Shown: piece by piece, positions 237-11,439 of the stretch
How the letters are laid out: the number at the start of each line of letters is the position of its first letter
How positions within the stretch are numbered: position 1 is the stretch's first letter
DNA from: Chloroflexota bacterium
GTDB lineage: Bacteria > Chloroflexota > Anaerolineae > 4572-78 > J111
Direction of reading: 5' to 3'
Length of the DNA stretch: 17,023 bases
Assembly (NCBI GenBank): GCA_003695455.1
Contig: RFJF01000640.1
Coordinates: forward strand, 1-17,023
Made by a program: the position numbers and the translations under genes
Notes under the pieces: generated by a model
The model's input: only the letters and a program-made list of their open reading frames with translations
Told to the model about the DNA's origin: nothing
Databases searched by the model: none

Positions 237-1715
237 TTACGTGGGGATGTAGCTTCCGCGGCCCAGCACCAGGGTCACGCTCAAATCGCCCATGGCGATG
301 CCGGGCACGGCAATCACGCCATCGCCCAATTTGTAAAGCGGCGGCGAGGTGTTGTGTTCTTTCAATTCGTCGTAAAGATTGAGGCCAAGTTCTCTGGCCC
401 GGGCCACGGTGGAGCCGTCAACAATGGCGCCGGACAGCACCGGGATGTCATCGTACCCGTCAATAAATTGCTTGCCCGGCCCGTCGGTGCCGTCTGAATC
501 TACCGAGCCCATCACAATGTTGTCTGTGGGGGCCAGTTCCAGCGCGGCGCGCAGGGCGTACTCCTGATTGCGGCCGCCCATTCCCTTTTTGTTGCCCACC
601 GTCACCACCATTTCGCCCCGGCCAAAGAGGGCGCAAGGCGGCTCAAAGGGGTCGCCGGAGGCGGATGAGTGGATGGCCAGGTTGGCGACAAATTTGCCAA
701 TCTGCCCGGCTTCCGGCTGCATCACGTGGTTGTTGTACAGCACGTGTGGCGTAAACCCCAGCTCAATCGCTTTCTGGCGGGCGGCGTGTAACATCCCCAA
801 TTCATCCGGCATGGTGCAAAAAATGCGAAACCGCGTTTTGTTGAAATCTTCCAGACTCAGGGTTTCCTGCGCCGGGTCGGCCCGCAGTAAATGTTCCCGC
901 ACCGAGGCCGGTACAGCGTCCCAGGCGTCCCATTTTTTAAGGCTGTCAACTGCGTCGGCGTAGGTCAGGTAATCCGGAAGCGTGTGCAGCCAGCGGTTGA
1001 TTCTGTGGTGCATCAAATCTTTGTACGTCCGCCGCCGGAAGGCAATCAGATGGATGGCTCGCGCCGGCTGGATGTGGGCCGTCAGTTTTCCGCCTTTCAG
1101 TTGGTCCAGATGGTTGCGGATGGGGGTCAGGTCGATGGTTTGCCCGCCCTTTTCAATTTGAAAAATGTAGGTGGTTTGGCGCACATCTTCCAGGCTGATA
1201 CCCGGCGCGGGCAGGGTCAGCAGGGATGACACGCCGTTGCAAATGATGGTGAAGACCAAATCGTCGGGGCGCAGGTCGCGGGTCATTTCCAGAATTTGCT
1301 GACTGCCCTGCACACAGCCTTCGTCCGGCACGGGGTGCGCGCCAAACGTTACGCCAATTTTTTGCAGAATTTTCTCGCCGCCGTGTTTGTCAATCACGTG
1401 GCCGCCGGTCAGCCGGTCGCCCAGGATTTCTTCGATGGCTTTGGCGGTGCGCTGAACGCCTTTGCCCGCGCCCAACACAAAAATGCGACCAACCTGGTTC
1501 AGGTCAATCTCTTCCTCGCCGGATTGGGGGCCGCCGGGCGGTTCAAAAGCCGGATAGCCCACAATCAGCTTGTGCCCCTCAACCCGCATGAGTTTGAACA
1601 CGTTGTTGTAGGGGTCGGCGGCCTGCATGCCGGCTTCAAGAATTTCAAGCACGGCTTTGCGGCCGGCAATGTTGCCGTGAGAGGTCAGCGTTTCCGGGTT
1701 CAGTATGCGTTTCAT
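237..1715 (-). CDS. Glycerate-kinase-like protein A (MOFRL/DUF4147 family), divergent active site
   Basis: A member of the glycerate 2-kinase (MOFRL, DUF4147) family, of about 492 residues (usual members about 420-450). Seen in sequence: the nucleotide-loop motif GAGKG with its lysine near residue 85, AHPVPDE near 126, the MOFRL-type GMGGRNQE near 378-385 with its arginine, and DGTDGP near 408-413. Odd: the family's SGGGSAL stretch reads CNGVSSL (about 159-165), and the ISDVPGDD...SGPT stretch is replaced by an arginine-rich segment (FRRRTYKD). A bona fide glycerate kinase assignment is therefore unsafe. The ATG at 1715 is chosen because it aligns exactly with the start of paralogue B (MxRILN); a TTG at 1730 that overlaps the enolase stop is the alternative. 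Last gene of the operon, immediately after the enolase-like gene. Family call strong, substrate unknown. Confidence 0.85.
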   Translation of the reverse strand: MKRILNPETLTSHGNIAGRKAVLEILEAGMQAADPYNNVFKLMRVEGHKLIVGYPAFEPPGGPQSGEEEIDLNQVGRIFVLGAGKGVQRTAKAIEEILGDRLTGGHVIDKHGGEKILQKIGVTFGAHPVPDEGCVQGSQQILEMTRDLRPDDLVFTIICNGVSSLLTLPAPGISLEDVRQTTYIFQIEKGGQTIDLTPIRNHLDQLKGGKLTAHIQPARAIHLIAFRRRTYKDLMHHRINRWLHTLPDYLTYADAVDSLKKWDAWDAVPASVREHLLRADPAQETLSLEDFNKTRFRIFCTMPDELGMLHAARQKAIELGFTPHVLYNNHVMQPEAGQIGKFVANLAIHSSASGDPFEPPCALFGRGEMVVTVGNKKGMGGRNQEYALRAALELAPTDNIVMGSVDSDGTDGPGKQFIDGYDDIPVLSGAIVDGSTVARARELGLNLYDELKEHNTSPPLYKLGDGVIAVPGIAMGDLSVTLVLGRGSYIPT

Positions 1716-1726
1716 AGGGGTCACAC

Positions 1727-3004
1727 TCAATGGTTTTGTAATTTCAATGCCTGTTTGCCCAGGAATTTGGCCCGGCTGCCCAGTTCGGCCTCAATTTCCA
1801 GAAAACGGTTGGCAACCTCGCCGGTGGCTTCCTCGCGCAGATGGCCGGTTCCCAGGCCCACGGTGTAATCGGCAATGGCAACGCCTTCGCCGCGGCTTTT
1901 GCAGGGCATCACGCCGTAGCCGTGCCGGTAGGCCAGTTGCACCGTGTCAAAGGCTTCGGTGATGGTGCCAATCTGGTTGACTTTCAGCAGCACGGTGTTG
2001 GCCGCGCCCGCCTCAATGCCTTCCTGCAGGCGTTCAACGTTGGTGGTAAACAGGTCGTCGCCCACAATTTCTATACCCAGTTCGCGAGTCAACATGGCGT
2101 GGCCTTCCAGGTCAAACTCTTCCAGCGGGTCTTCCAAAATGACAAAGGGATAGTTTGCCACCATTTCCCGGTACAGTTTGAACAGGTCGTCGCGGCTTTT
2201 CTCTCCGGCGGAAAAGAGGCCAACGTAGCGTTGGGTTTTGGGCTCAAAATAGCTACTGGCGGCAACATCTACCTGAAAACCAATCTGCCCCTCGTAGCCT
2301 TTGTTGACAACGGCTTGCAGCATAATGTCCCACAGTTCGCGGTCGTGCTTGACAATGCCCGGAGCCACCAGCCCAACGCCGCGCCAGCTTTCTACGTTCA
2401 GTCTTTCCCACAGCAGCCGAAAGTATTCTCTGGCGGTTTCCCAGGCGGCGTAGGAGGCTTCGGAGTAGCTGTTGAAGCCGTAGCACATGTAGGAGTAGGT
2501 AGGTTTGGAGCCGGCCCGCAGGCCGCCGCCGTAACGCCGGCTGCCGCGTAGGGTGATAACGCCGGGAACCGGCAAAATGCAGGCGTTGACCCCGCCAATG
2601 TGCCGGTACAGGGGGATGCCCAAACTGGCCGCGCCGGCCTGCAACACAGCCGCCGACACGCTGGCGGTGGCGTTGCCGCCCAGATTGGCTTTGTTGGGAG
2701 TGCCATCCAGTTTGATGATGGCATCGTCAACTTCACGCTGGTGGGAGGCATCCATACCGGTAATGGCCGGGCCAATAACATCGGTGATGTTTTGGACGGC
2801 TTGTTGCACGCCTCGCCCGCCCCAGCGGTCGCCGCCGTCGTAGGCAAATTGCACTTCGTGAATGCCCACCGACACGCCCGCCGTGGCCGTGGCCCGGCCC
2901 CTGGCGCCGTTTTGGGTGACGATGGTGGTTTCAACGCCGGGGTGTCCCCGTTCGGTGAACACCTGGCGCGCGGTAACGGATACAATGGTGGATTCTGAAG
3001 CCAT
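1727..3004 (-). CDS. Enolase-like protein with remodelled active site
   Basis: A 425-residue member of the enolase family, close to normal enolase length, with clear family landmarks: LDGTPNK (99-105), PLYRHIGG (131-138), EDPLEEFD (291-298), GDDLFTTN (315-322), LKVNQIGT (340-347). The three magnesium ligands (D246, E291, D316) and the catalytic lysine (K341) are present. Missing or changed compared with true enolases: the SGAST lid reads AGVSVG (42-47), the histidine loop GG-H-A-N is replaced by a segment rich in G and R, the GDEGGFAP glutamate is lost (GVGLVAP, 209-215), the SHRSGE loop reads CKSRGE (368-373), and the last active-site lysine reads R390. Housekeeping 2-phosphoglycerate dehydration is thus unlikely; a related dehydration or epimerisation is inferred. 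An AAGGAG site lies 8 bases before the ATG. It sits between the two glycerate-kinase-like genes, whose family product would be enolase's normal substrate. Confidence 0.88.
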   Translation of the reverse strand: MASESTIVSVTARQVFTERGHPGVETTIVTQNGARGRATATAGVSVGIHEVQFAYDGGDRWGGRGVQQAVQNITDVIGPAITGMDASHQREVDDAIIKLDGTPNKANLGGNATASVSAAVLQAGAASLGIPLYRHIGGVNACILPVPGVITLRGSRRYGGGLRAGSKPTYSYMCYGFNSYSEASYAAWETAREYFRLLWERLNVESWRGVGLVAPGIVKHDRELWDIMLQAVVNKGYEGQIGFQVDVAASSYFEPKTQRYVGLFSAGEKSRDDLFKLYREMVANYPFVILEDPLEEFDLEGHAMLTRELGIEIVGDDLFTTNVERLQEGIEAGAANTVLLKVNQIGTITEAFDTVQLAYRHGYGVMPCKSRGEGVAIADYTVGLGTGHLREEATGEVANRFLEIEAELGSRAKFLGKQALKLQNH

Positions 3005-3060
3005 GCGTTTTGCTCCTTGGAGGATTCAGGGTCAGGAAATCTACCCGGTATTTTTAGTTT

Positions 3061-4530
3061 TCAGGTGCGATTACTGCGGCCCAACACCAGAGTCACGCTC
3101 AAATCAATCATACTGAGGCTGGGAGACGCCACCACACCATCGCCCAGCCGGTAAATGGCCGGCGAGGTATTGTGGGTTTTGATTGCCTCAAACAAATCAA
3201 TCCCCAATTCACGGGCGCGGGCAGCGCTTGTGCCGTCAACCACGCCGCCGGTCAGCACCGGAATGTCGTCGCAGCCGTCCACAAACTGGTGTCCGGGGCC
3301 GTCGGTGCCGTCGGTGTCAACGGACCCCATTACCACGTGTTCTGTTCCGGCAATTTCCAGCGCGGCGGCCAGGGCGTATTCCTGATTGCGGCCGCCCATC
3401 CCCCGTTCTGCGCCAACCGTCACCAATAGTTCGGTGCGGCCAATCAGGGCGCAGGGCGGCTCAAATGGCTGGCCGTCCTGTTCAGAGTGACGGGCCATGT
3501 TGGCTACCACTTTGCCCATTTGCGCCGCTTCAACGCTCATCACGTTGTTGTCGTACAGCAGAATGGGTTTAAAGCCGAATTCGCGGGCTTTTTGGCGGGC
3601 GGCGGGAATTGCACCCAGGTGGTCGGGCAGGGTGCAGAAAATGCGAAAGCGGTTCTTTTGAAACTCGGCTGCTTTCACGGTGTCCTGCGCCGGGTCGGCC
3701 CGGAGTAGATGTTCGCGCACCGCGGGCGATACGTCATCCCAGCAATTCCATTTTTTGAGCAGGTTCACGGCCATGTCGAAGGTGGAGTAGGTGGGCAGCG
3801 AGTGCAGCCAACGATTGCGGTACATCAGGTCATCGTACGCCCACAGCCAGTGGTTAACAAGGTGGATGGCCCGGGCCGGCTGGATGTGCCGCGAAAGCCG
3901 CCCGCCTTTCATCTGGTCCAACTGGTTGCGAACCGGCCCCAGTTCGCTGGTGTGCAGCCCCCGTTCAATCTGCATCAGATGTGTGACCTGCCCCACATCG
4001 GCCAGGGTGAGGCCGGGCGCGGGCAGGGTTAACAGCGAGGAAACGCCGTTGCTGACCGTGGTAAAGACCAGGTCATCCTCGCGCAGGTCGCGGGTCATTT
4101 CAAGAATGCGCCGGCAGCCGCGCACGCAATCCTCGTCCGGCACGGGGTGCGCGCCAAACGTTACCCCGATGTTTTCCAGAATCAGCGGCGTACCTTTTTT
4201 GTCAATCACGTGGCCGCCGGTCAACCGGTCGCCCAGTATTTCTTCGATGGCTTTGGCGCTACGCTGAATGCCTTTGCCCGCGCCAAACACAAAAATCCGG
4301 TTGACGGAATCCAGGTCAATCACTTCTGGCCGGCCGCCTTGCGGGTCGCCGTGCGGCTCAAAGTCCGGGCCGCCGATGGTCAGGATGTTGCCCCGGCGGC
4401 GCATCAGCTTGAGCGTGTTGAAATATGGGTCTACCGCCTGCAAACCGGCCTCAAGAATTTCAACCATGGCCCGCCGCCCGGCAATGTTGCCGTGCGACGT
4501 TAATTCGCCGGTGTTCAGAATTCTTGGCAT
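3061..4530 (-). CDS. Glycerate-kinase-like protein B (MOFRL/DUF4147 family), paralogue of A
   Basis: About 489 residues and a clear paralogue of protein A along its whole length (shared LTSHGNIAGR, GAGKGIQRSAKAIEEILGDR, HPVPDE, VREHLLRADPAQ, GMGGRNQEYAL, DGTDGPG). It carries the same two departures from the family: SNGVSSL in place of SGGGSAL, and no ISDVPGDD...SGPT segment, here replaced by NHWLWAYDDL. Because the change is shared, the shift preceded the duplication. The start is ATG 4530, giving a 16-base overlap with the aldolase stop; an in-frame ATG at 4575 is rejected because it would lengthen the overlap and add residues absent from A. A weak GGAAAAG lies just upstream. Inferred role: acts on a three-carbon or sugar-acid intermediate next to the enolase-like protein, possibly as a mixed complex with A. 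Confidence 0.85.
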   Translation of the reverse strand: MPRILNTGELTSHGNIAGRRAMVEILEAGLQAVDPYFNTLKLMRRRGNILTIGGPDFEPHGDPQGGRPEVIDLDSVNRIFVFGAGKGIQRSAKAIEEILGDRLTGGHVIDKKGTPLILENIGVTFGAHPVPDEDCVRGCRRILEMTRDLREDDLVFTTVSNGVSSLLTLPAPGLTLADVGQVTHLMQIERGLHTSELGPVRNQLDQMKGGRLSRHIQPARAIHLVNHWLWAYDDLMYRNRWLHSLPTYSTFDMAVNLLKKWNCWDDVSPAVREHLLRADPAQDTVKAAEFQKNRFRIFCTLPDHLGAIPAARQKAREFGFKPILLYDNNVMSVEAAQMGKVVANMARHSEQDGQPFEPPCALIGRTELLVTVGAERGMGGRNQEYALAAALEIAGTEHVVMGSVDTDGTDGPGHQFVDGCDDIPVLTGGVVDGTSAARARELGIDLFEAIKTHNTSPAIYRLGDGVVASPSLSMIDLSVTLVLGRSNRT

Positions 4531-5381
4531 GGAGCTTTTCCGGTTGTGCCAAACAGGTCCAGATAGTAGCCGCAACGCTCCTGAAAAGAGTCCATTGCCG
4601 CTTTCATCAGACCTTGATAATTGATACCGTCCTCTTTTTGTGCGGTCTCAACCAGCCGGCGGCCGGTGGTGCGGTACAGGTCTGTGGCAACGTTCACTTT
4701 GGAAATACCGCCTTTGATGGCCGCGCGAAACTGCTCTTCTGACAGGCCGGAGCCGCCGTGCAGTACCAATGGCACATCAACTGCGGCGCGTATTTGGGCC
4801 AGCAGGTCAAGGTCCAGTTGGGGTTTGCCCCGGTAAACGCCGTGCGCTGTGCCAATGGCAACGGCCAAAAAATCAACGCCGGTTTCTTCAACAAACCGGG
4901 CCGCCAGCTCCGGGTCGGTAAAGCCTTTGCGCTGGGCGGCAAAATCCTGATACTCGCTGCCCTGGCCCACGTGGCCCAGTTCGGCTTCAACGCTGATGCC
5001 CATGGCGTGCGCCGCCCGCACAATTTCTTTGGTGTTCTTCATATTTTCTTCAACCGGAAGTTTGGACCCGTCGTACATCACATCGGTGAACCCCAGCGAG
5101 ATGGCGCGCATACATTGCTCAAAATCTGCGCCGTGGTCCAGATAGAGTGTGACCGGCACGGGCGATTTTTCGGCCCGTGCCCGGATGTAGGCCGCATACG
5201 CCGGAATCCAGGGGAAATCCATCCAGGTTGAATAGATGGCGGCAATTACCGGGGCGCGCCGTTCTTCAATGGCGGCAAACATACCTTCGGTGCTGTTCAT
5301 ATCGTAAGTGTCAAACAGGGGGATGGCGTAACCGCCCTGCCGGGCGCGTAACAGTTCATTTTTTATGGATACAAGTGGCAT
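4515..5381 (-). CDS. Class II ketose-(bis)phosphate aldolase
   Basis: A 288-residue class II (zinc) aldolase of the fructose/tagatose-bisphosphate aldolase family, of normal length. Seen: LDHG at 81-84 (catalytic Asp and zinc His), EAELGHVG at 132-139, GTAHGVY at 177-183 and LHGGSGL at 207-213 (zinc histidines), and KVNVATD at 228-234 (phosphate binding). The family would cleave a ketose phosphate to DHAP plus an aldehyde. Odd: the N-terminal substrate motif usually read as AFN-x-x-N-x-E is PLFDTYDMNS (21-30), with Asp in place of the first Asn, suggesting a shifted substrate. The preceding kinase stop overlaps an AAAGGAG ribosome site 12 bases before this ATG, and the gene's end overlaps gene B by 16 bases, so translation is probably coupled. 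Confidence 0.9.
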   Translation of the reverse strand: MPLVSIKNELLRARQGGYAIPLFDTYDMNSTEGMFAAIEERRAPVIAAIYSTWMDFPWIPAYAAYIRARAEKSPVPVTLYLDHGADFEQCMRAISLGFTDVMYDGSKLPVEENMKNTKEIVRAAHAMGISVEAELGHVGQGSEYQDFAAQRKGFTDPELAARFVEETGVDFLAVAIGTAHGVYRGKPQLDLDLLAQIRAAVDVPLVLHGGSGLSEEQFRAAIKGGISKVNVATDLYRTTGRRLVETAQKEDGINYQGLMKAAMDSFQERCGYYLDLFGTTGKAPCQEF

Positions 5382-5398
5382 AGTTTGTACTAGCTCCT

Positions 5399-6340
5399 TT
5401 AACTGAGGCTGATTCCTTGTTCTGCCAGAAATGAAATTACTTCATCATAGGTGGGAATGGCGCGCCGGCCGCCCAGTTTGGTACATTCCAGCGCCGAAAC
5501 GGCGGTGCAGAAGGTGGCAATGGTGCGTAAATCCCAGCCTTTGAGCAAGCCCACAATGTAGGCCCCGTGGAACACATCGCCCGCGCCGGTGGTGTCTACT
5601 ACGTCAATGTTGGTGAAGGGCGGCGTGTGAAACTGCTGCTCTCTGGTAACGGTAAAGCTGCCGGCTTCGCCTTCTGTTTGCACCACAATAGATGGCCCCC
5701 TGTCCAGCACGGCGGCGCAGGCTTCCCACGTGTCAGATTTTCCGGTCAGTAACTGGGCAAACCCGGACCCGCAAATTAAAACGTCAACATATTCAATCAG
5801 CGGGATGAGATGCGGGCGGATTGGTTTGCCGTCGGTTTTGCTGCCATCCAGCACCACAGTTTTGCCGGCTTCGCGCATCCAGCGGGCGGCTTGCAGAGAT
5901 GCCTCCGGGTGAAAGCCATCCAGGTGCAGGTATTGGGCCGAGGTGATGTAATCTTTGTCCAGCTCCTCAATTTTCAACGGAGATTTGCGGATATTTTCCA
6001 GCGTGTTAAACACCCGTTCGCCGGTTTGGGCATGGACAAACACAAACACAATCTGGTCTTCGGGCGCATTGCGGTACACCATCCGGCTCAAATCAACCCC
6101 GGCCTGGCGCAGAGACTGGAGCTTCAACTCGCCAAGCTGGTCGTTGCCCACGGTGCCCACAAACCCAACGCGCGCTCCCAGCCGGGCCATAGCCACGGTG
6201 GCTGTTCCGGCAGGCCCGCCGCCGTCAAAGCCAAAATTGCAAAACGGTGTTCGATGTTCCCAGGTGGGCATGTCTGTGAGCCGGATGAGAACATCCAGCG
6301 CGGTTAAACCCAGACCAACAACTTGCAGTTCAGCCATCAT
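5399..6340 (-). CDS. PfkB (ribokinase)-family sugar kinase
   Basis: A PfkB carbohydrate kinase of about 313 residues. Seen: the N-terminal substrate motif GFDGGGPAGTATVAMARLG, the VGNDQLGE stretch, and the C-terminal anion-hole signature DTTGAGDVFHGAY with the catalytic Asp, followed by LECTKLGGRRAIP. It would phosphorylate the ketose made by the upstream isomerase, supplying the aldolase. The ending (VFHGA...CTxxGGRxxIP) resembles, from memory, the subgroup containing sulfofructose kinase YihV, but the arginine I recall binding sulfonate there falls on LDG here, so that substrate is not indicated. Start uncertain: ATG 6340 or 6337 (neither with a good ribosome site), or TTG 6361, which overlaps the isomerase stop as TTGA. 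Confidence 0.87.
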   Translation of the reverse strand: MMAELQVVGLGLTALDVLIRLTDMPTWEHRTPFCNFGFDGGGPAGTATVAMARLGARVGFVGTVGNDQLGELKLQSLRQAGVDLSRMVYRNAPEDQIVFVFVHAQTGERVFNTLENIRKSPLKIEELDKDYITSAQYLHLDGFHPEASLQAARWMREAGKTVVLDGSKTDGKPIRPHLIPLIEYVDVLICGSGFAQLLTGKSDTWEACAAVLDRGPSIVVQTEGEAGSFTVTREQQFHTPPFTNIDVVDTTGAGDVFHGAYIVGLLKGWDLRTIATFCTAVSALECTKLGGRRAIPTYDEVISFLAEQGISLS

Positions 6341-6357
6341 ACGTTGCCCAACACTGC

Positions 6358-7815
6358 TCAATCTACCACAACCGGCTTGATGCCCATAAATTTGCAGACC
6401 TGGAGCAGTGATTTGCTCTGGTCGCCGTGAACCATGCTGACATGGTGGATAAACCCTTCTTCAATGAGCGTGCGGTACAATTTTTTGTGGTCTTTTACTT
6501 CAACCCAGGCCCAGGTGCCGGCCAGTATTTCATCGGTGGGGATAATCTGGCCGGTGGTGATGAGCATTTTCCACTCGTCATCATATTCAACCAGCCGGCA
6601 GAAAGTGACTTTGCCCGGTTTAATCTGGAACTGGGCCAGCCCGGCCTGCGGATTGCCTTCCGGGTCTGTTTCTTCGCCTTTCATGTTGGTGCGCGAGCGC
6701 AGGGTGGCTTCCTGGGGGTCTGCCGCCAGCGAGATGGGGGCGTTGCCGCAATGCCAGGCCATCAGCCAGTTTTCGTTATCCCGGTGCTGAATGGTCCAGT
6801 CTACAAAATGAGGCACGGTTTCACCGAGGGCGGCAAAATAGTTGGTCATCATAGCCACAGCGCCCAGCACGTCTACCTCGCAGGCGGTCAGGGCGGCGGT
6901 ATCGGTGAGGCGGCCAAAAATGTTACAGACCGACAGCCCCATCAATTTTTGAATGGAGGGCCAACACTGAATAGCCATCGCCGTCAGCTTGTTTTCTTCC
7001 CAGAATTCCCGGATGGCGAGTTCCATTTTGGCCGCGTTGAGCATGTAATCTTGGCCCACAGTGATTGATTTGAACATACCGCGGACTTCTTCTACCACGC
7101 CCAACACTTTGGGGTCGTCATCGGCGTAAGATTGGGCGCGGCCGGTAATTTCTGACAACTCTGTGTAGATGATGTTCTGCTCAAACTTGCGAATCAGAGC
7201 CACTTCATCGTAGGCCATGGTTTCAAAGAAGGGGGTTCGCACGCCCACCTGCCCGATGCGCGCGCCGGTCAGCCCTTTGACCACAGCAACCGCCCGGATG
7301 AAGGTGTCAACCTCTTCCAGCAATTCCGGTTCGCCGGGGAAGAAAAGGCCGGCCCAGTGAAAGGGGATTTTGCGGCGGTACAAGCCGCTTGCCAGCGACA
7401 GGTTGCCGCAGTAAGAGTCTGATTTGCGGGCCAGGCTGGCGTTGGTGTGGGCTTCGGGTTCTTTGGTGGCGTAGAGCAACACCGGAACCTTCAATTTTTC
7501 GGCCACTTTCACCGCCGAGCGCTCGTCGCCAAAATCCAGCGGACAAATGATGATGCCGTCAACTTTTTGGGCGGCAAAATATTGGGCCACCACTTCGGCC
7601 TCGTCAAGGGTGTTGACTCCGCCGTTGGGGGTATACCCCATTTCAGCATCCAGCGTTTTGCCGTCTGGCGAGGGGTGAGGCGTGACCAATTCCATGGCCT
7701 CTACGGTAGACAGGGCGGCTACGCTTTCTTTGTACATGGTGCTGGCCCAGGCTTCAAAGCGCAGTTTGTTTCGGTAGGATGGTACAAATCCAATTTTTAC
7801 GGTTATCTTGCTCAC
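6358..7815 (-). CDS. L-fucose/L-arabinose isomerase-like protein
   Basis: About 485 residues of the L-fucose isomerase-related family (COG2407-like): an aldose-ketose isomerase using a divalent metal. Seen (numbering from GTG 7815): DGIIICPLDFGDE near 86-98, AIQCWPS near 281-287, CEVDVLGA near 312-319 with the expected acidic residues, AWHCGNAP near 353-360, and HHVSMVHGD near 457-465 near the C terminus, a typical histidine-bearing end. An ATG at 7830 is in frame, but the GGAGG ribosome site lies inside that extension, 8 bases before GTG 7815, so GTG is chosen. It is the first gene of the six-gene operon. Exact sugar unknown; members of this family act on fucose, arabinose and, in some lineages, sulfoquinovose. 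Confidence 0.85.
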   Translation of the reverse strand: MSKITVKIGFVPSYRNKLRFEAWASTMYKESVAALSTVEAMELVTPHPSPDGKTLDAEMGYTPNGGVNTLDEAEVVAQYFAAQKVDGIIICPLDFGDERSAVKVAEKLKVPVLLYATKEPEAHTNASLARKSDSYCGNLSLASGLYRRKIPFHWAGLFFPGEPELLEEVDTFIRAVAVVKGLTGARIGQVGVRTPFFETMAYDEVALIRKFEQNIIYTELSEITGRAQSYADDDPKVLGVVEEVRGMFKSITVGQDYMLNAAKMELAIREFWEENKLTAMAIQCWPSIQKLMGLSVCNIFGRLTDTAALTACEVDVLGAVAMMTNYFAALGETVPHFVDWTIQHRDNENWLMAWHCGNAPISLAADPQEATLRSRTNMKGEETDPEGNPQAGLAQFQIKPGKVTFCRLVEYDDEWKMLITTGQIIPTDEILAGTWAWVEVKDHKKLYRTLIEEGFIHHVSMVHGDQSKSLLQVCKFMGIKPVVVD

Positions 7816-7876
7816 GGTACAAACCTCCATTTAAAATGTTGTGGTGCAACGAGTTCTCGCCCGATTGGCCTTTGGG

Positions 7877-8090: not shown

Positions 8091-8123
8091 AAAACAGGGG
8101 CCAAAATCTGTTTTGGCCCCCTG
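8091..8123 (-). terminator. Rho-independent terminator of the importer operon
   Basis: GGGGCCAAAA (8097-8106) and TTTTGGCCCC (8111-8120) pair perfectly around a four-base loop, extended by CAG/CTG with one bulged C. On the minus strand the stem is followed by TGTTTTCC, a T-run. It begins 13 bases past the MalG-like permease stop. This is the clearest terminator of the window and splits the importer genes from the catabolic genes. Confidence 0.85.
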
Positions 8124-8136
8124 ATTGTGGGCATAA

Positions 8137-8973
8137 TTATCCTTTAATGCCCGAGCGGGTAATGCCTTGGGCAATATAACGTTGCAAAACAAAAAACAAT
8201 ACCAACACCGGCAGCGCGCCTAAAAATGCGGCCGCAAACGCCGAATGCAACACCACTACCTGGGCCGTTAAAAAGGTGGAAATGTTAACCTGAATAGTCC
8301 ACCATTCGCGCCCCTGCCCAATAACAAGCGGCCACAAAAAGGCGTTCCAGCTATTAACCAGCGTGAGTGACCCCAGCGCAATAATAATAGGCCAGGCATT
8401 TGGCAGGGCCAGCCGCCAGAAAATGCCAAAATAATTCAGGCCATCAACCTTGCCAGCATCCTCCAAATCGGCGGGGAAGCTGAGAAAGTACTGCCGGAAC
8501 ATAAAGGTGTTGAAGGCGTTAAACACACCGGGAACAATCAGCCCCTGCCAGGTGTTAACCCAGCCAATTTTGGCAATCAACACAAATTGCGGCACAAACA
8601 TGGCCTGCAACGGCACCAAAAACGTAATCAACACAAACCACAACACAATGTTTGAATATTTAAATGGCACGCGAGCCAGTGCATACCCGGCCATGCAGGA
8701 CAGCGAAATCTGAACGACCACCGTGACGGTGGCAATAATTGCTGAATTTTTGAAGCCGTTGAGCATCGGCACAAACGGGTCGGCAAACAGTTCGGGGTAG
8801 TTTTGCCATTGTGTTACTTCGGGCCAAAAAACCCAATCCCAGGCGGTGATTTCCAGTTCTGTCATCAACGAATTGCGCAGGAGCAAGTACAAGGGAATCA
8901 GAAACAGGATGGCAAAAAATATCAGGATAAACTGGGATAGGGTGCTGTTTAGTAGTCTGAAGGTCCTGGACAT
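8137..8973 (-). CDS. ABC sugar transporter permease, MalG-like (CUT1)
   Basis: A 278-residue inner-membrane permease with an N-terminal membrane helix (about residues 12-30), a periplasmic-type segment, and five further hydrophobic helices, as in MalG/UgpE proteins. The EAA loop that docks the ATPase is seen as DAGKVDGLNYFGIFWRLALP near residues 170-190. It starts 3 bases after the MalF-like stop, with AGGAAAGGAAG upstream as ribosome site, and forms a heterodimer with that partner. Its operon carries no ATPase gene, so a shared MsmX/UgpC-type ATPase elsewhere in the genome is inferred. Substrate probably the sugar handled by the downstream catabolic operon. Confidence 0.9.
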   Translation of the reverse strand: MSRTFRLLNSTLSQFILIFFAILFLIPLYLLLRNSLMTELEITAWDWVFWPEVTQWQNYPELFADPFVPMLNGFKNSAIIATVTVVVQISLSCMAGYALARVPFKYSNIVLWFVLITFLVPLQAMFVPQFVLIAKIGWVNTWQGLIVPGVFNAFNTFMFRQYFLSFPADLEDAGKVDGLNYFGIFWRLALPNAWPIIIALGSLTLVNSWNAFLWPLVIGQGREWWTIQVNISTFLTAQVVVLHSAFAAAFLGALPVLVLFFVLQRYIAQGITRSGIKG

Positions 8974-8976
8974 GAG

Positions 8977-9933
8977 CTAAACTTCCTTTCCTAACCCGCC
9001 CGTGAGTCGGGATTGGATAACGGTGACAACAAAAATAATCAACACCAAAATAAACGCGCCGGCAGTTCCGGTTCCGTAGAACTGCTGATTCATGGCAACC
9101 TGGTACAGGTACAACAGGGGCGGCCGGGCCAGAGATAGAAGACCGCCCGCTGTCCAGGTTGCACCCAGAATATTGTAAAATTCTGCAAAGGCCTGAAAAG
9201 CGTGAACCAGATTGACCAGCAGCACAAAAATAGATGTGTTACGCAGCAGCGGAAATGTGATGTGGCGGAACAATGTCCATTTGCTTTCGGCGCCATCTAC
9301 GCGGGCCGCCTCGTACATCTCCTGAGGGATATCCTGCATGCCGGCGATAAACAGAATCATGTAGAAGCCCACTTGCAGCCACAACCGAACGGTGACCAGT
9401 ACCATGTAGTGCCACGGCGGGCGGATGGTTCCAATCCAGGCAATAGGCTCAATTTCGGCCGTGACCCAAATAATCCAGTTGGCAAATCCGTAGGGTAAAC
9501 CGCTGAAAATTGCCATTCGCCAGATCATGGCGGCAATTACGTATGAAATGGCTGTGGGCATAAAAAAGATTGTGCGGAAAACGCCCTTGCCCCAGGCGGC
9601 ATTTTGTACCATAACCGCCAGAAATAACGAGAGAGCATATGTAACGGGCACAATAAACAGCGAGAACTGGGTGATAAACAACAACGATTTCAGGTAATCT
9701 TCATCGGTTAATATGTTGTAATAATTTGCAAGCCCCACATATTCTTCAAGGTTTACGGTTCCCCTGGATTTGTGCAGGCTGACCAGAAAGCCCCACACAA
9801 TTGGCGTGAAAATGAAAAACAGCAACCCCAAGACCACAGGCCCTACCATAAACCAAAAAATAATGGCATCTTTCCTGCGTCTTTTTTTGTTTGCGGTGGC
9901 TGCTGTGGTACCGGCTGATGCAGTTATAGCCAT
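8977..9933 (-). CDS. ABC sugar transporter permease, MalF/UgpA-like (CUT1)
   Basis: A 318-residue inner-membrane permease. A short cytoplasmic basic tail (KKRRRK at 17-22) precedes the first helix (about 25-49), followed by several more helices. The EAA loop reads EAARVDGAESKWTLFRHITF, near residues 213-232. It pairs with the MalG-like protein 3 bases downstream. A purine-rich AGGGGGAT lies about 7 bases before the ATG. It is separated from the binding-protein gene by 165 bases that carry a strong hairpin, which could lower its expression relative to the binding protein. Confidence 0.9.
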   Translation of the reverse strand: MAITASAGTTAATANKKRRRKDAIIFWFMVGPVVLGLLFFIFTPIVWGFLVSLHKSRGTVNLEEYVGLANYYNILTDEDYLKSLLFITQFSLFIVPVTYALSLFLAVMVQNAAWGKGVFRTIFFMPTAISYVIAAMIWRMAIFSGLPYGFANWIIWVTAEIEPIAWIGTIRPPWHYMVLVTVRLWLQVGFYMILFIAGMQDIPQEMYEAARVDGAESKWTLFRHITFPLLRNTSIFVLLVNLVHAFQAFAEFYNILGATWTAGGLLSLARPPLLYLYQVAMNQQFYGTGTAGAFILVLIIFVVTVIQSRLTGGLGKEV

Positions 9934-10041
9934 GGGTTATCCCCCTAACTTAAAGTGCGTTTCTTTCAAGGTGTGGCAACAGTTCAGTAATCCTGATATG
10001 AACATTGGCTGCCGTCTGGTTGGGGCGGCGAGCCCGGCACT

Positions 10042-10075
10042 GTCAGGATGGGGAAAAGTATCTCCCCATCCTGAC
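10042..10075 (-). promoter_or_regulatory. Strong intercistronic hairpin between binding-protein and permease genes
   Basis: GTCAGGATGGGGA (10042-10054) and TCCCCATCCTGAC (10063-10075) form a perfect 13-bp stem with an 8-base loop. It sits in the 165-base gap after the binding-protein stop codon. No T-run follows on the minus strand, so it is more likely an RNA-stability or partial-attenuation element that keeps binding-protein mRNA in excess, as known for malE-malF type operons. Confidence 0.65.
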
Positions 10076-10098
10076 GTACTGACCGTTGTTAACAGGTT

Positions 10099-11439
10099 CT
10101 ACAGTTTGTTGAACTCGGCCACGTTTTCGGCAAGCTGTTCATTGCATTTATCATAGGCGGCTTGCACACCTGCGGCCACGTCTCCACCATTCTTGATGAT
10201 TTCAGTGAGAGAGTCTTCGATGGCTGTTTGCATACCACTGGTCCACAAAACACCGTAGTTAAGACCGTATTTATTAACAGCATCCACACCTGCCTGGGCC
10301 GGCATTTTAGAGAGTTTGGCGTTTGATTCGCCGGCGCTCTTGCGCGGCGGCACGTGGAAGCCGTAACCGGTATTCCATTCATTCTGCCAATCGGTGTTTT
10401 CAATCCACTGCCATTTGGTGTAGGCTTTGGCTTCCGGCACGTGTTCACCGTCGTTAACCAGTGCCACCCAGCCGCGCCGCCAGGTAGCCGGGCGCGGATT
10501 ATCAACGCCGTTCATGGGCGGCAGGGCGCTAATGGTAAAGTCCTCGCCCACGCCATCGAGCAGACCCGGAACTTCCCAGAATCCAATCCACTGCATTGCC
10601 GTTTGGCCCTGAATAAAGGCTGCCGGGTCCCACCAGTCGGTGGGTGCGCCCAAAAGCAACACATCCATATCATTATTGATTGCTCGCAACTTGTCCCAAG
10701 CCAGCACGGTTTCGGGCTGGTTGAATTTGAGCGTCATTTCAGGGTCTTCTTCGGTAAGGAAGTTGACGCCGGCAGTGTAGGTAATGGGCTGCCACATAGA
10801 GTGGATGCCGCCATCGTTGCCCAGGAAGAGACCTTTGCGCCGGCCGGTGGTTAACGCTTTGGCGTTCTCTACCATTTCATCCCATGTTTCGGGGTGTTTG
10901 AGGCCGGCTTCTTCCAGCATACTGTTGCGGGTACACAGCAGGCCAAAGTCAACAATCATACGGATACCGTATTTTGTACCCTTGATGGTTACTGCATCCA
11001 GGTCGGTGGGGTTAAAGTCATCCTCTACCCCTTCGTACAGGTCATCCAGCGACACCACTTGCTTGTTGGCCACTTTGTCAATGGTAACCTGGTCTTCGTA
11101 GCAGTCGGGGCCGGTGCCGGCGGCCAGCGCCGAGTACAGCTTGGACCGGTAGTCGCCGGGGTTCCAGGTTACTTCAACCTTAACTTTGTCCTGCATGTTG
11201 TTGTATTCGTCGGCAATGCGGAATACTGCTTCTTGCGTGCCTTTTTCACCGTATTCGTGGTACCACTGTTGCAACACAACTGCGGCAGCAGCGGGGGCAG
11301 CTTCTTTGGGGGCTTCACCTTCTTTTGCTGCGGGGGCGGCGGGTTGGGCGCCTCCGCCACCACAACTTGCCAGAATGACACCCACGCCAATTACTGAGGT
11401 TCGTTTCAGAAAATCACGACGTGATAACCTTGAAGACAT
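10099..11439 (-). CDS. Extracellular sugar-binding lipoprotein of the CUT1 ABC importer
   Basis: A 446-residue family 1 extracellular solute-binding protein. The N terminus has a twin-arginine motif (SRRDFLK, 6-12), a hydrophobic stretch, and a lipobox LASC with C26 as the predicted lipidated cysteine, then a Gly- and Ala/Pro-rich linker (27-53). This indicates Tat export and membrane anchoring. The mature part shows typical features such as VEVTWNPGDYRSKLYSALAA and GPDCYEDQ. An AAGGAG site lies 8 bases before the ATG. It is the first gene of the importer operon; upstream are palindromes that could bind a regulator. Substrate not readable from sequence; the neighbouring catabolic operon suggests a sugar or derivative. 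Confidence 0.9.
   Translation of the reverse strand: MSSRLSRRDFLKRTSVIGVGVILASCGGGGAQPAAPAAKEGEAPKEAAPAAAAVVLQQWYHEYGEKGTQEAVFRIADEYNNMQDKVKVEVTWNPGDYRSKLYSALAAGTGPDCYEDQVTIDKVANKQVVSLDDLYEGVEDDFNPTDLDAVTIKGTKYGIRMIVDFGLLCTRNSMLEEAGLKHPETWDEMVENAKALTTGRRKGLFLGNDGGIHSMWQPITYTAGVNFLTEEDPEMTLKFNQPETVLAWDKLRAINNDMDVLLLGAPTDWWDPAAFIQGQTAMQWIGFWEVPGLLDGVGEDFTISALPPMNGVDNPRPATWRRGWVALVNDGEHVPEAKAYTKWQWIENTDWQNEWNTGYGFHVPPRKSAGESNAKLSKMPAQAGVDAVNKYGLNYGVLWTSGMQTAIEDSLTEIIKNGGDVAAGVQAAYDKCNEQLAENVAEFNKL

What the first reader, a model, noticed from the sequence alone, without database searches (positions are those of the whole stretch)
237..7815. Six-gene sugar-degradation operon ending in altered lower-glycolysis paralogues
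Seen: isomerase, PfkB kinase, class II aldolase, glycerate-kinase-like B, enolase-like, glycerate-kinase-like A, all on one strand with short gaps or overlaps, next to a sugar importer. The first three fit an isomerise-phosphorylate-cleave route. The last three mimic glycerate -> 2-phosphoglycerate -> PEP but have lost the residues for those reactions. Since housekeeping enolase exists in nearly all bacteria, an operon-borne altered copy points to a specialised step. I infer a catabolic pathway whose later half is undescribed as far as I know. Candidate substrates include a sulfosugar, a deoxysugar or a sugar acid derivative.
Basis: partly seen in the sequence, partly recalled or inferred. Interest (0 to 1): 0.85.

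Follow-up and report, generated by a model that had tools for sequence, protein, structure and literature searches.

The report
Sugar operon with a repurposed enolase
A bacterial sugar-degradation operon ends in a remodelled enolase and two remodelled glycerate-kinase-like proteins, a recurring module of unknown reaction that probably turns an unusual three-carbon hydroxy acid, perhaps a sulfonate, into a central metabolite.

Summary
The six-gene operon is real. It has two conserved halves. The first (arabinose/fucose-isomerase-fold protein, PfkB kinase, class II aldolase) recurs as a unit in 7 other genomes. The second is an enolase-like protein beside a DUF4147/MOFRL (class II glycerate kinase) relative; they are adjacent in 21 of 27 loci, from four phyla. 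In one sample of 400 genomes of the phylum the halves co-occur (2 of 3 against 0 of 397). The 120 enolase-like sequences compared (window included) all keep the metal ligands, Ser39 and the base Lys345, but all have replaced Glu168, Glu211, His159, Arg374 and Lys396. They could still enolise a 2-phospho acid but lack the residues that expel water. Of 28 genomes, 20 also hold a canonical-scoring enolase. Neighbours include aldehyde-oxidoreductase-like, 2-hydroxyacid dehydrogenase and lactate-racemase-type genes, so the substrate is probably a 2-hydroxy acid. Best mechanism: hydroxyaldehyde to hydroxy acid to 2-phospho acid, then loss of a C3 group that needs no acid catalyst, most likely sulfite from 2-phospho-3-sulfolactate, giving phosphoenolpyruvate. 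All reactions and the substrate are inferred; L-glycerate and other acids remain open.

The parts
6358..7830 (-). Isomerase of arabinose/fucose isomerase fold (start GTG 7815 or ATG 7830)
5399..6361 (-). PfkB-family sugar kinase
   Evidence: PF00294; best-scoring solved structure is sulfofructose kinase 7ag6: 123 bits alone against 101 for the next, 157 as profile against 130
4515..5381 (-). Class II ketose-1-phosphate-type aldolase
   Evidence: PF01116, 293 bits; matches class II FBA/tagatose-type structures
3061..4575 (-). Altered DUF4147/MOFRL (class II glycerate-kinase-like) protein B; an ATG at 4530 is a likelier start
   Evidence: PF13660 and PF05161; lacks class II glycerate kinase motif
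1727..3004 (-). Altered enolase: metal site and base kept, leaving-group residues lost
237..1730 (-). Altered DUF4147/MOFRL protein A, 66% identical to B
   Evidence: identity; motif loss
8096..8121 (-). Terminator-like hairpin between importer and catabolic operon
   Evidence: 11 pairs, 6 G-C, T-rich tail (consensus scan only, 16 sites found against 19 expected in the region)
8137..11439 (-). Sugar-type ABC importer: permeases 8137-8973 and 8977-9933, presumed binding protein 10099-11439
   Evidence: Permeases PF00528, UgpE/GlcU-like and UgpA/GlcT-like; the binding protein has no Pfam match and only a Tat signal match, so its role is inferred from position

Best explanation
The operon degrades a hexose-like sugar. 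Inferred steps: (1) the isomerase makes a ketose; (2) the PfkB kinase phosphorylates C1; (3) the class II aldolase gives DHAP plus a 2-hydroxyaldehyde; (4) an aldehyde:ferredoxin-oxidoreductase-like enzyme, encoded elsewhere in this genome, oxidises it to a 2-hydroxy acid X-CH2-CH(OH)-COO-; (5) the kinase-like protein(s) phosphorylate O2; (6) the enolase-like protein, using Lys345, the two-metal site and the Ser39 loop, removes the C2 proton and expels X, which needs no general acid, giving PEP. X is most likely sulfite (2-phospho-3-sulfolactate -> PEP + sulfite), which would make this a carbon-sulfur-cleaving mimic of lower glycolysis. Shown by sequence: gene order, families, residue retention and loss, recurrent pairing, co-occurrence. 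Inferred: every reaction and the identity of X.
For: Residues: in all 120 listed sequences (119 homologs and the window's own) S39, D246, E295, D320 and K345 are kept; E168 is S or T; no Glu at 211 (3 gaps; Glu within two columns in 9); H159 is R (117) or K (3); K396 is R; R374-S375 is S-R; 166 is K. In M. tuberculosis enolase Ser42 and metal B hold the phosphate, Arg364 binds it, and Glu204 and Glu163 handle the water (passages of PMC10619443; mapping to yeast numbers is mine). Pairing: kinase-like gene adjacent in 21 of 27 loci, in the same cluster in 1 more (L031). Link of the halves: in the same 400 genomes of the phylum an isomerase at E below 1e-190 occurs in 2 of 3 with altered enolase and 0 of 397 without (Fisher p 4e-5, or 0.005 without the own genome; 2e-4 at the looser cut-off 1e-120, where 2 of 397 others match). 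In G382 both units lie on one 51.6-kb contig. Oxidation step: AOR-like gene next to the trio in L087, with the kinase-like gene in the own genome (L126) and L031, and in the L128 cluster. 2-Hydroxy acid: lactate-racemase-type genes in 6 loci (L019, L026, L032, L128, L129, L130), 2-hydroxyacid dehydrogenase in L031, L035, L138. Sulfonate: isomerase and kinase each have a sulfosugar enzyme as best named or solved match.
Against: No reaction is shown. The isomerase is far below the SftI cut-off (144 against 700) and below 15 other proteins of the phylum on that model (265-343 bits, also below the cut-off). The three residues I recall as sulfonate-binding in E. coli sulfofructose kinase (K27, N109, R138) are not conserved. 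No sulfoquinovosidase over the cut-off in 14 genomes (no control genome reached the cut-off either, so weak). No sulfite exporter or sulfite-handling gene turned up among the neighbours annotated, which were only a part. The kinase-like proteins lack several class II glycerate kinase motifs, so kinase activity itself is in doubt. The sugar trio is not beside the pair in any other fetched locus except at a distance on the G382 contig. AOR assignments rest on matches well below that model's cut-off (137-190 bits against 868).
Confidence: 0.33

Rival explanations
1. The substrate is L-glycerate (or another stereoisomer, or a C4 sugar acid such as threonate): the kinase-like protein makes an L- or substituted 2-phospho acid and the enolase-like protein dehydrates it with a rearranged pocket.
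For: Neighbourhoods fit any route to a C3-C4 2-hydroxy acid: GarL-type aldolase plus AOR-like gene in L031, MR_MLE sugar-acid dehydratases in L035, L128, L138. Loss of both acidic residues and gain of Arg/Lys could mean that phosphate and leaving group have swapped sides.
Against: Ser39 is invariant in the 120 sequences, which argues for phosphate in its usual place on the second metal. Six loci hold a lactate-racemase-type enzyme, which could turn L-glycerate into D-glycerate for ordinary enzymes. I see no replacement acid for expelling hydroxide.
Confidence: 0.25
2. The enolase-like protein does not eliminate anything: it is an epimerase/racemase or isomerase of a 2-hydroxy or 2-phospho acid, or a subunit of a complex with the DUF4147 protein, which is no longer a kinase.
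For: Leaving-group residues are lost while the base stays. The altered kinase-like rows lack the class II motif and SDVxGD in 29 of 29. L033, L035, L128 and L138 carry a second, degenerate enolase without Lys345, which hints at heteromeric, non-standard chemistry.
Against: The lysine and arginine that I recall as catalytic in TM1585, HPxPD, KGG and GGRNQE are largely kept in the kinase-like set. Six loci already have a separate racemase-type gene. Enolase has one base on one face (recalled).
Confidence: 0.22
3. An ordinary D-glycerate -> 2-phosphoglycerate -> PEP branch (as in the branched/non-phosphorylative Entner-Doudoroff route) with merely diverged enzymes.
For: Gene content of L031 (AOR-like, glycerate-kinase-like, enolase-like) copies that route; the enolase-like protein passes NCBI's eno model, 309.8 bits against 300.
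Against: Residues identical in the 11 canonical enolases compared are replaced in all 120 sequences. 20 of 28 genomes with it also have a canonical-scoring enolase, and the own genome also has a canonical-scoring DUF4147 kinase on C178.
Confidence: 0.1
4. The last three genes have nothing to do with the first three; they sit in one transcript by chance insertion.
For: In the 7 other trio genomes the trio operon itself does not contain the pair. G+C is about 0.58-0.60 over the last three genes and 0.54-0.57 over most of the first three.
Against: Overlaps or gaps of at most 56 bp and genome-level co-occurrence; AOR-like genes link both units.
Confidence: 0.1

Closest known systems
Enolase (phosphopyruvate hydratase, EC 4.2.1.11)
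   Different: E168, E211, H159, H373, R374, K396 replaced; new invariant Y160, K166-P167, C372, S374-R375, R396 in the 120 sequences; separate clade
Class II (MOFRL) glycerate 2-kinase
   Same: DUF4147 plus MOFRL domains; conserved Lys and Arg, HPxPD, KGG, GGRNQE
   Different: Published family motif and SDVxGD absent in 29 of 29, RKHxS -> RN[H/Q]xD in 29 of 29
Sulfo-EMP2 sulfoglycolysis (SqvD, SqiK, SqiA)
   Same: Isomerase, kinase and class II aldolase in that order of reactions (PMC12890257 passages; that SqvD is of the fucose-isomerase type and SqiK of the PfkB family is recalled)
   Different: Low score to the SftI model, recalled sulfonate residues not conserved, no sulfolactaldehyde reductase or dehydrogenase recognised beside it, extra kinase/enolase-like half
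Branched / non-phosphorylative Entner-Doudoroff lower branch (AOR, glycerate kinase, enolase)
   Same: Order of reaction types aldehyde -> acid -> 2-phospho acid -> PEP; gene set of L031; glycerate kinase class from PMC2063504 passages
   Different: Altered enzymes in place of ordinary glycerate kinase and enolase
Sulfolactate sulfo-lyase SuyAB
   Same: Known enzyme cleaving sulfite from sulfolactate (PMC12890257 passages)
   Different: Iron-dependent enzyme giving pyruvate (same passages); different family and no phosphorylated intermediate (recalled)

Membership tests
Enolase EC 4.2.1.11 | Enolase fold, metal ligands D246/E295/D320, base K345, S39 | tested here: met
Enolase EC 4.2.1.11 | Leaving-group pair E168/E211 | tested here: not met
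   E168 is S or T in 120 of 120; no Glu at 211 in 120 (3 gaps), Glu within two columns in 9; alignment at 211 is uncertain (gap in the window)
Enolase EC 4.2.1.11 | Phosphate/carboxylate residues H159, R374, K396 | tested here: not met
   R or K, S and R in 120 of 120
Enolase EC 4.2.1.11 | 2-phosphoglycerate dehydratase activity | not testable with these tools
   needs enzyme assay
Class II glycerate 2-kinase | DUF4147 and MOFRL domains | tested here: met
Class II glycerate 2-kinase | Published motif D-X(0,2)-G-X(0,1)-D-[GP]-X(4)-[APS]-[ACDGST] (PMC2063504) | tested here: not met
   0 of 29 altered rows (one, L126, is cut by the contig end) against 11 of 11 canonical rows at the DGxDG site; 4 more distant rows set apart beforehand: 4 of 4 anywhere, 3 of 4 at that site
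Class II glycerate 2-kinase | NCBIfam equivalog cut-off | tested here: not met
   best 82 bits against 670 and 71 against 550
Sulfo-EMP2 pathway | Sulfoquinovose isomerase SftI/SqvD | tested here: not met
   143.7 bits against cut-off 700
Sulfo-EMP2 pathway | Sulfofructose kinase with sulfonate-binding residues | tested here: inconclusive
   Best solved match, but recalled residues K27/N109/R138 of the E. coli enzyme, which belongs to sulfo-EMP and not EMP2, are not conserved
Sulfo-EMP2 pathway | Class II aldolase | tested here: met
   PF01116; specificity for SFP not tested
Sulfo-EMP2 pathway | Sulfoquinovosidase in the genome | tested here: inconclusive
   0 of 14 genomes over the cut-off, own genome no match, but no control genome over the cut-off either

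The most novel reading that the evidence does not exclude
A new desulfonation route: a kinase of the MOFRL family makes 2-phospho-3-sulfolactate and a repurposed enolase splits it to PEP and sulfite, the reverse in outcome of the phosphosulfolactate synthase step of coenzyme M synthesis (recalled). It occurs patchily in Chloroflexota, Bacillota, Spirochaetota and Bathyarchaeota, in some clusters with a degenerate partner enolase, and passes as phosphopyruvate hydratase in automatic annotation.
Probability: 0.25. Interest if true: 0.88.

Novelty: new variant of a known kind. Interest (0 to 1): 0.64.

Why it matters
Enolase is among the most conserved enzymes known, and its subgroup is usually treated as one reaction (recalled). 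A clade that keeps the enolising machinery but drops the water-expelling residues, usually beside a remodelled kinase, points to an unassigned reaction in several phyla. It passes NCBI's eno model, so databases label it phosphopyruvate hydratase, which would mislead metabolic models. If the leaving group is sulfite, it adds a PEP-yielding way to recycle organosulfonate carbon and sulfur.

Tried and rejected
Ordinary enolase: given low odds on residues and on coexistence with canonical-scoring enolase. True sulfoquinovose pathway: isomerase far below the model cut-off and recalled kinase residues not conserved, so kept only as architecture. Uronate route (aldolase giving tartronate semialdehyde, then glycerate): considered because an Ldh_2 gene follows the trio in L086 and L093; it would feed D-glycerate, which ordinary enzymes handle; not tested further. 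Lactate as substrate: no C3 leaving group. Contig-length matches between enolase and isomerase homologs: three exact matches, but shifted controls gave 0 to 4, so dropped as evidence. PDB profile search for the isomerase: no match up to E 1. The fold searches were second looks at Foldseek hits; a family not listed there is not excluded. Split altronate-dehydratase/SuyAB-type genes in L138: the names given by sources say altronate dehydratase or UxaA family; I could not tell them from SuyAB. A TGPTGTN-type loop pattern was tried on the kinases but fitted only 1 of 11 canonical rows, so it is not used.

Literature: in the held library the searches listed no paper that by title or abstract describes an enolase-like plus glycerate-kinase-like module; listings were not opened except as said next, and most subscription papers are not held. 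Papers seen: PMC12890257 outline and passages; PMC10599462 passages; PMC10619443 passages; PMC2063504 passages; others only in listings (too).
Full report
What is there. The window is a whole contig (C60) of a draft genome of 4.38 Mb in 929 contigs, 87% complete. Six minus-strand genes run isomerase, PfkB kinase, class II aldolase, DUF4147 protein B, enolase-like, DUF4147 protein A, with gaps of 17 and 56 bp and otherwise overlaps. An ABC importer precedes them; a terminator-like hairpin at 8121-8096 lies between.

It is not the housekeeping enzyme. Of 28 genomes with an altered enolase, 20 also hold a match of at least 298 bits to Enolase_C, as canonical enolases do, one of them partial; their residues were not checked. 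The own draft genome shows none; 10 of its 11 family relatives have one, and none of the 11 shows an altered type in the Enolase_C search, so a gap in the draft and a loss cannot be told apart.

It is patchy. With strict cut-offs it was found in 3 of 400 genomes of the phylum, 3 of 299 of the family of the L035 genome and 2 of 247 of the phylum of the L032 genome, each count including the genome at the centre.

The kinase-like proteins. A and B are 66% identical. I compared 29 altered rows (2 from the window, 27 from loci fetched by then) with 11 canonical ones; 4 more distant rows (L022, L026, L132, L133) were set apart before counting, and later loci were not added. GxGK, HPxPD, KGG and GGRNQE are largely kept. 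RKHxS becomes RN[H/Q]xD in 29 of 29, SDVxGD is absent in 29 of 29 (and in the 4 distant rows), and the published class II motif is absent in 29 of 29, one row being cut by a contig end, against present in 11 of 11 canonical rows (motif from PMC2063504 passages). Whether the altered set still phosphorylates is open.

Conserved module. One genome-contig scan with the window's enolase gave 27 loci from 24 genomes by record title (four loci are from one assembly). The kinase-like gene is adjacent in 21 (in L022 and L026 it is of the more distant subtype), in the same cluster about 4.5 kb away in 1 (L031), and not seen in 5 (L021, L023, L024, L028, L030; the gene of L024 lies 850 bases from a contig end). 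Several Chloroflexota pairs have no catabolic neighbours among the genes annotated. Others do. L031: AOR-like, kinase-like, GarL-type aldolase, ABC permeases, enolase-like, D-2-hydroxyacid dehydrogenase. L035 (Lachnospiraceae) and L138 (Spirochaetota) share MR_MLE dehydratase (75%), 2-hydroxyacid dehydrogenase, FAA hydrolase, TAXI-TRAP transporter, enolase-like, degenerate enolase, kinase-like. L032, L129 and L130 share a Liv-type importer and a lactate-racemase-type enzyme (L032 passes the NPN group 22 model, 503.7 against 400; L129 and L130 by similarity). These fit a small 2-hydroxy acid entering the pair.

The sugar half. The isomerase has relatives at 62-89% identity among the best 120 listed. 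Of 26 genomes with altered enolase searched (25 distinct, G382 and G429 being one), 7 distinct ones have an isomerase at E below 1e-190. All 7 have kinase and aldolase genes beside it; in L093 the kinase is seen by tblastn only and its frame looks broken. A LacI-type gene lies beside the operon in 4 of 7 (L088, L089, L090, L094). Two loci with weaker isomerases (L095, L096) lack the other two genes. In the sample of 400 genomes of the phylum the close isomerase occurs in 2 of 3 genomes with altered enolase (one is the own genome) and in 0 of 397 others; Fisher p 4e-5, or 0.005 without the own genome; at E 1e-120 it is 2 of 3 against 2 of 397, p 2e-4. The cut-off was chosen after seeing the scores. 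L087 continues the trio with a GFO/IDH/MocA oxidoreductase and an AOR-like gene, and the own genome has an AOR-like gene in one operon with a third altered kinase-like gene on C382. This could supply the aldehyde-to-acid step missing from the window. The AOR assignments rest on matches of 137-190 bits against a cut-off of 868 and on mutual similarity.

Substrate. Best named relatives of the first two enzymes are sulfosugar enzymes: SftI is the only NCBIfam match of the isomerase (144 bits, cut-off 700), and sulfofructose kinase is the best solved match of the kinase family by 27 bits. Sulfo-EMP2 uses an isomerase, a kinase and a class II aldolase (PMC12890257 passages). Against this: 15 other proteins of the phylum score 265-343 bits on SftI, recalled sulfonate residues are not conserved, and no sulfoquinovosidase was found, though that test had no working positive control.

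Mechanism. The residue pattern asks for a 2-phospho acid whose C3 group leaves without acid help and likes a basic pocket. Sulfite fits best; the alternatives are listed as rivals. The pathway would be sugar -> ketose -> ketose 1-phosphate -> DHAP + sulfolactaldehyde -> sulfolactate -> 2-phosphosulfolactate -> PEP + sulfite. Each reaction is inference.

Verdict.

Noticed in passing
L033:2562-3707, L035:9125-10414, L128:11229-12434, L138:10240-11520: A second, degenerate enolase directly follows the altered enolase; all four lack Lys345 in the alignment (D, A, S, V), and two also lack metal ligands. The L035 and L138 copies are 52% identical across phyla, so a pseudoenzyme partner may be selected for.
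   Followed up: partly
L061, L062: A third enolase type with E168 -> D and H373 -> A (260-266 bits on Enolase_C), beside canonical enolase in the same genomes. Matches of 255-284 bits occur in 7 more genomes, residues not checked there.
   Followed up: no
L007, L008, L014:11359-12807, L091:4877-6154, L143:6462-7694: A subtype of the altered enolase with Y159-R160 instead of R159-Y160; in L007/L133 it sits beside a more distant DUF4147 subtype.
   Followed up: partly
L126 (G000:C382): Own genome operon: AOR-like, weak GH5-like protein, GFO/IDH/MocA dehydrogenase, xylose-isomerase-like TIM barrel, third altered DUF4147, cut by the contig end.
   Followed up: partly
L138:3367-4937: Split altronate-dehydratase/SuyAB-type gene pair (small ORF that looks like a SAF domain, by eye, plus GD_AH large subunit) inside the altered-enolase cluster.
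   Followed up: partly
L088, L090, L094: Trio operons with two isomerase-kinase pairs and one aldolase beside a LacI regulator, as if two related sugars were handled.
   Followed up: no
window:1-10000: G+C is 0.54-0.60 in the catabolic genes and about 0.49 in the permease genes, hinting at separate origins.
   Followed up: no
L143:4897-6444, L028:3582-5024: In two Bathyarchaeota loci a monomethylamine methyltransferase MtmB-like gene lies next to an altered enolase.
   Followed up: no
window:1727-3004: The altered enolase scores 309.8 bits, over the eno equivalog cut-off of 300, and several homologs carry the name phosphopyruvate hydratase or enolase.
   Followed up: yes
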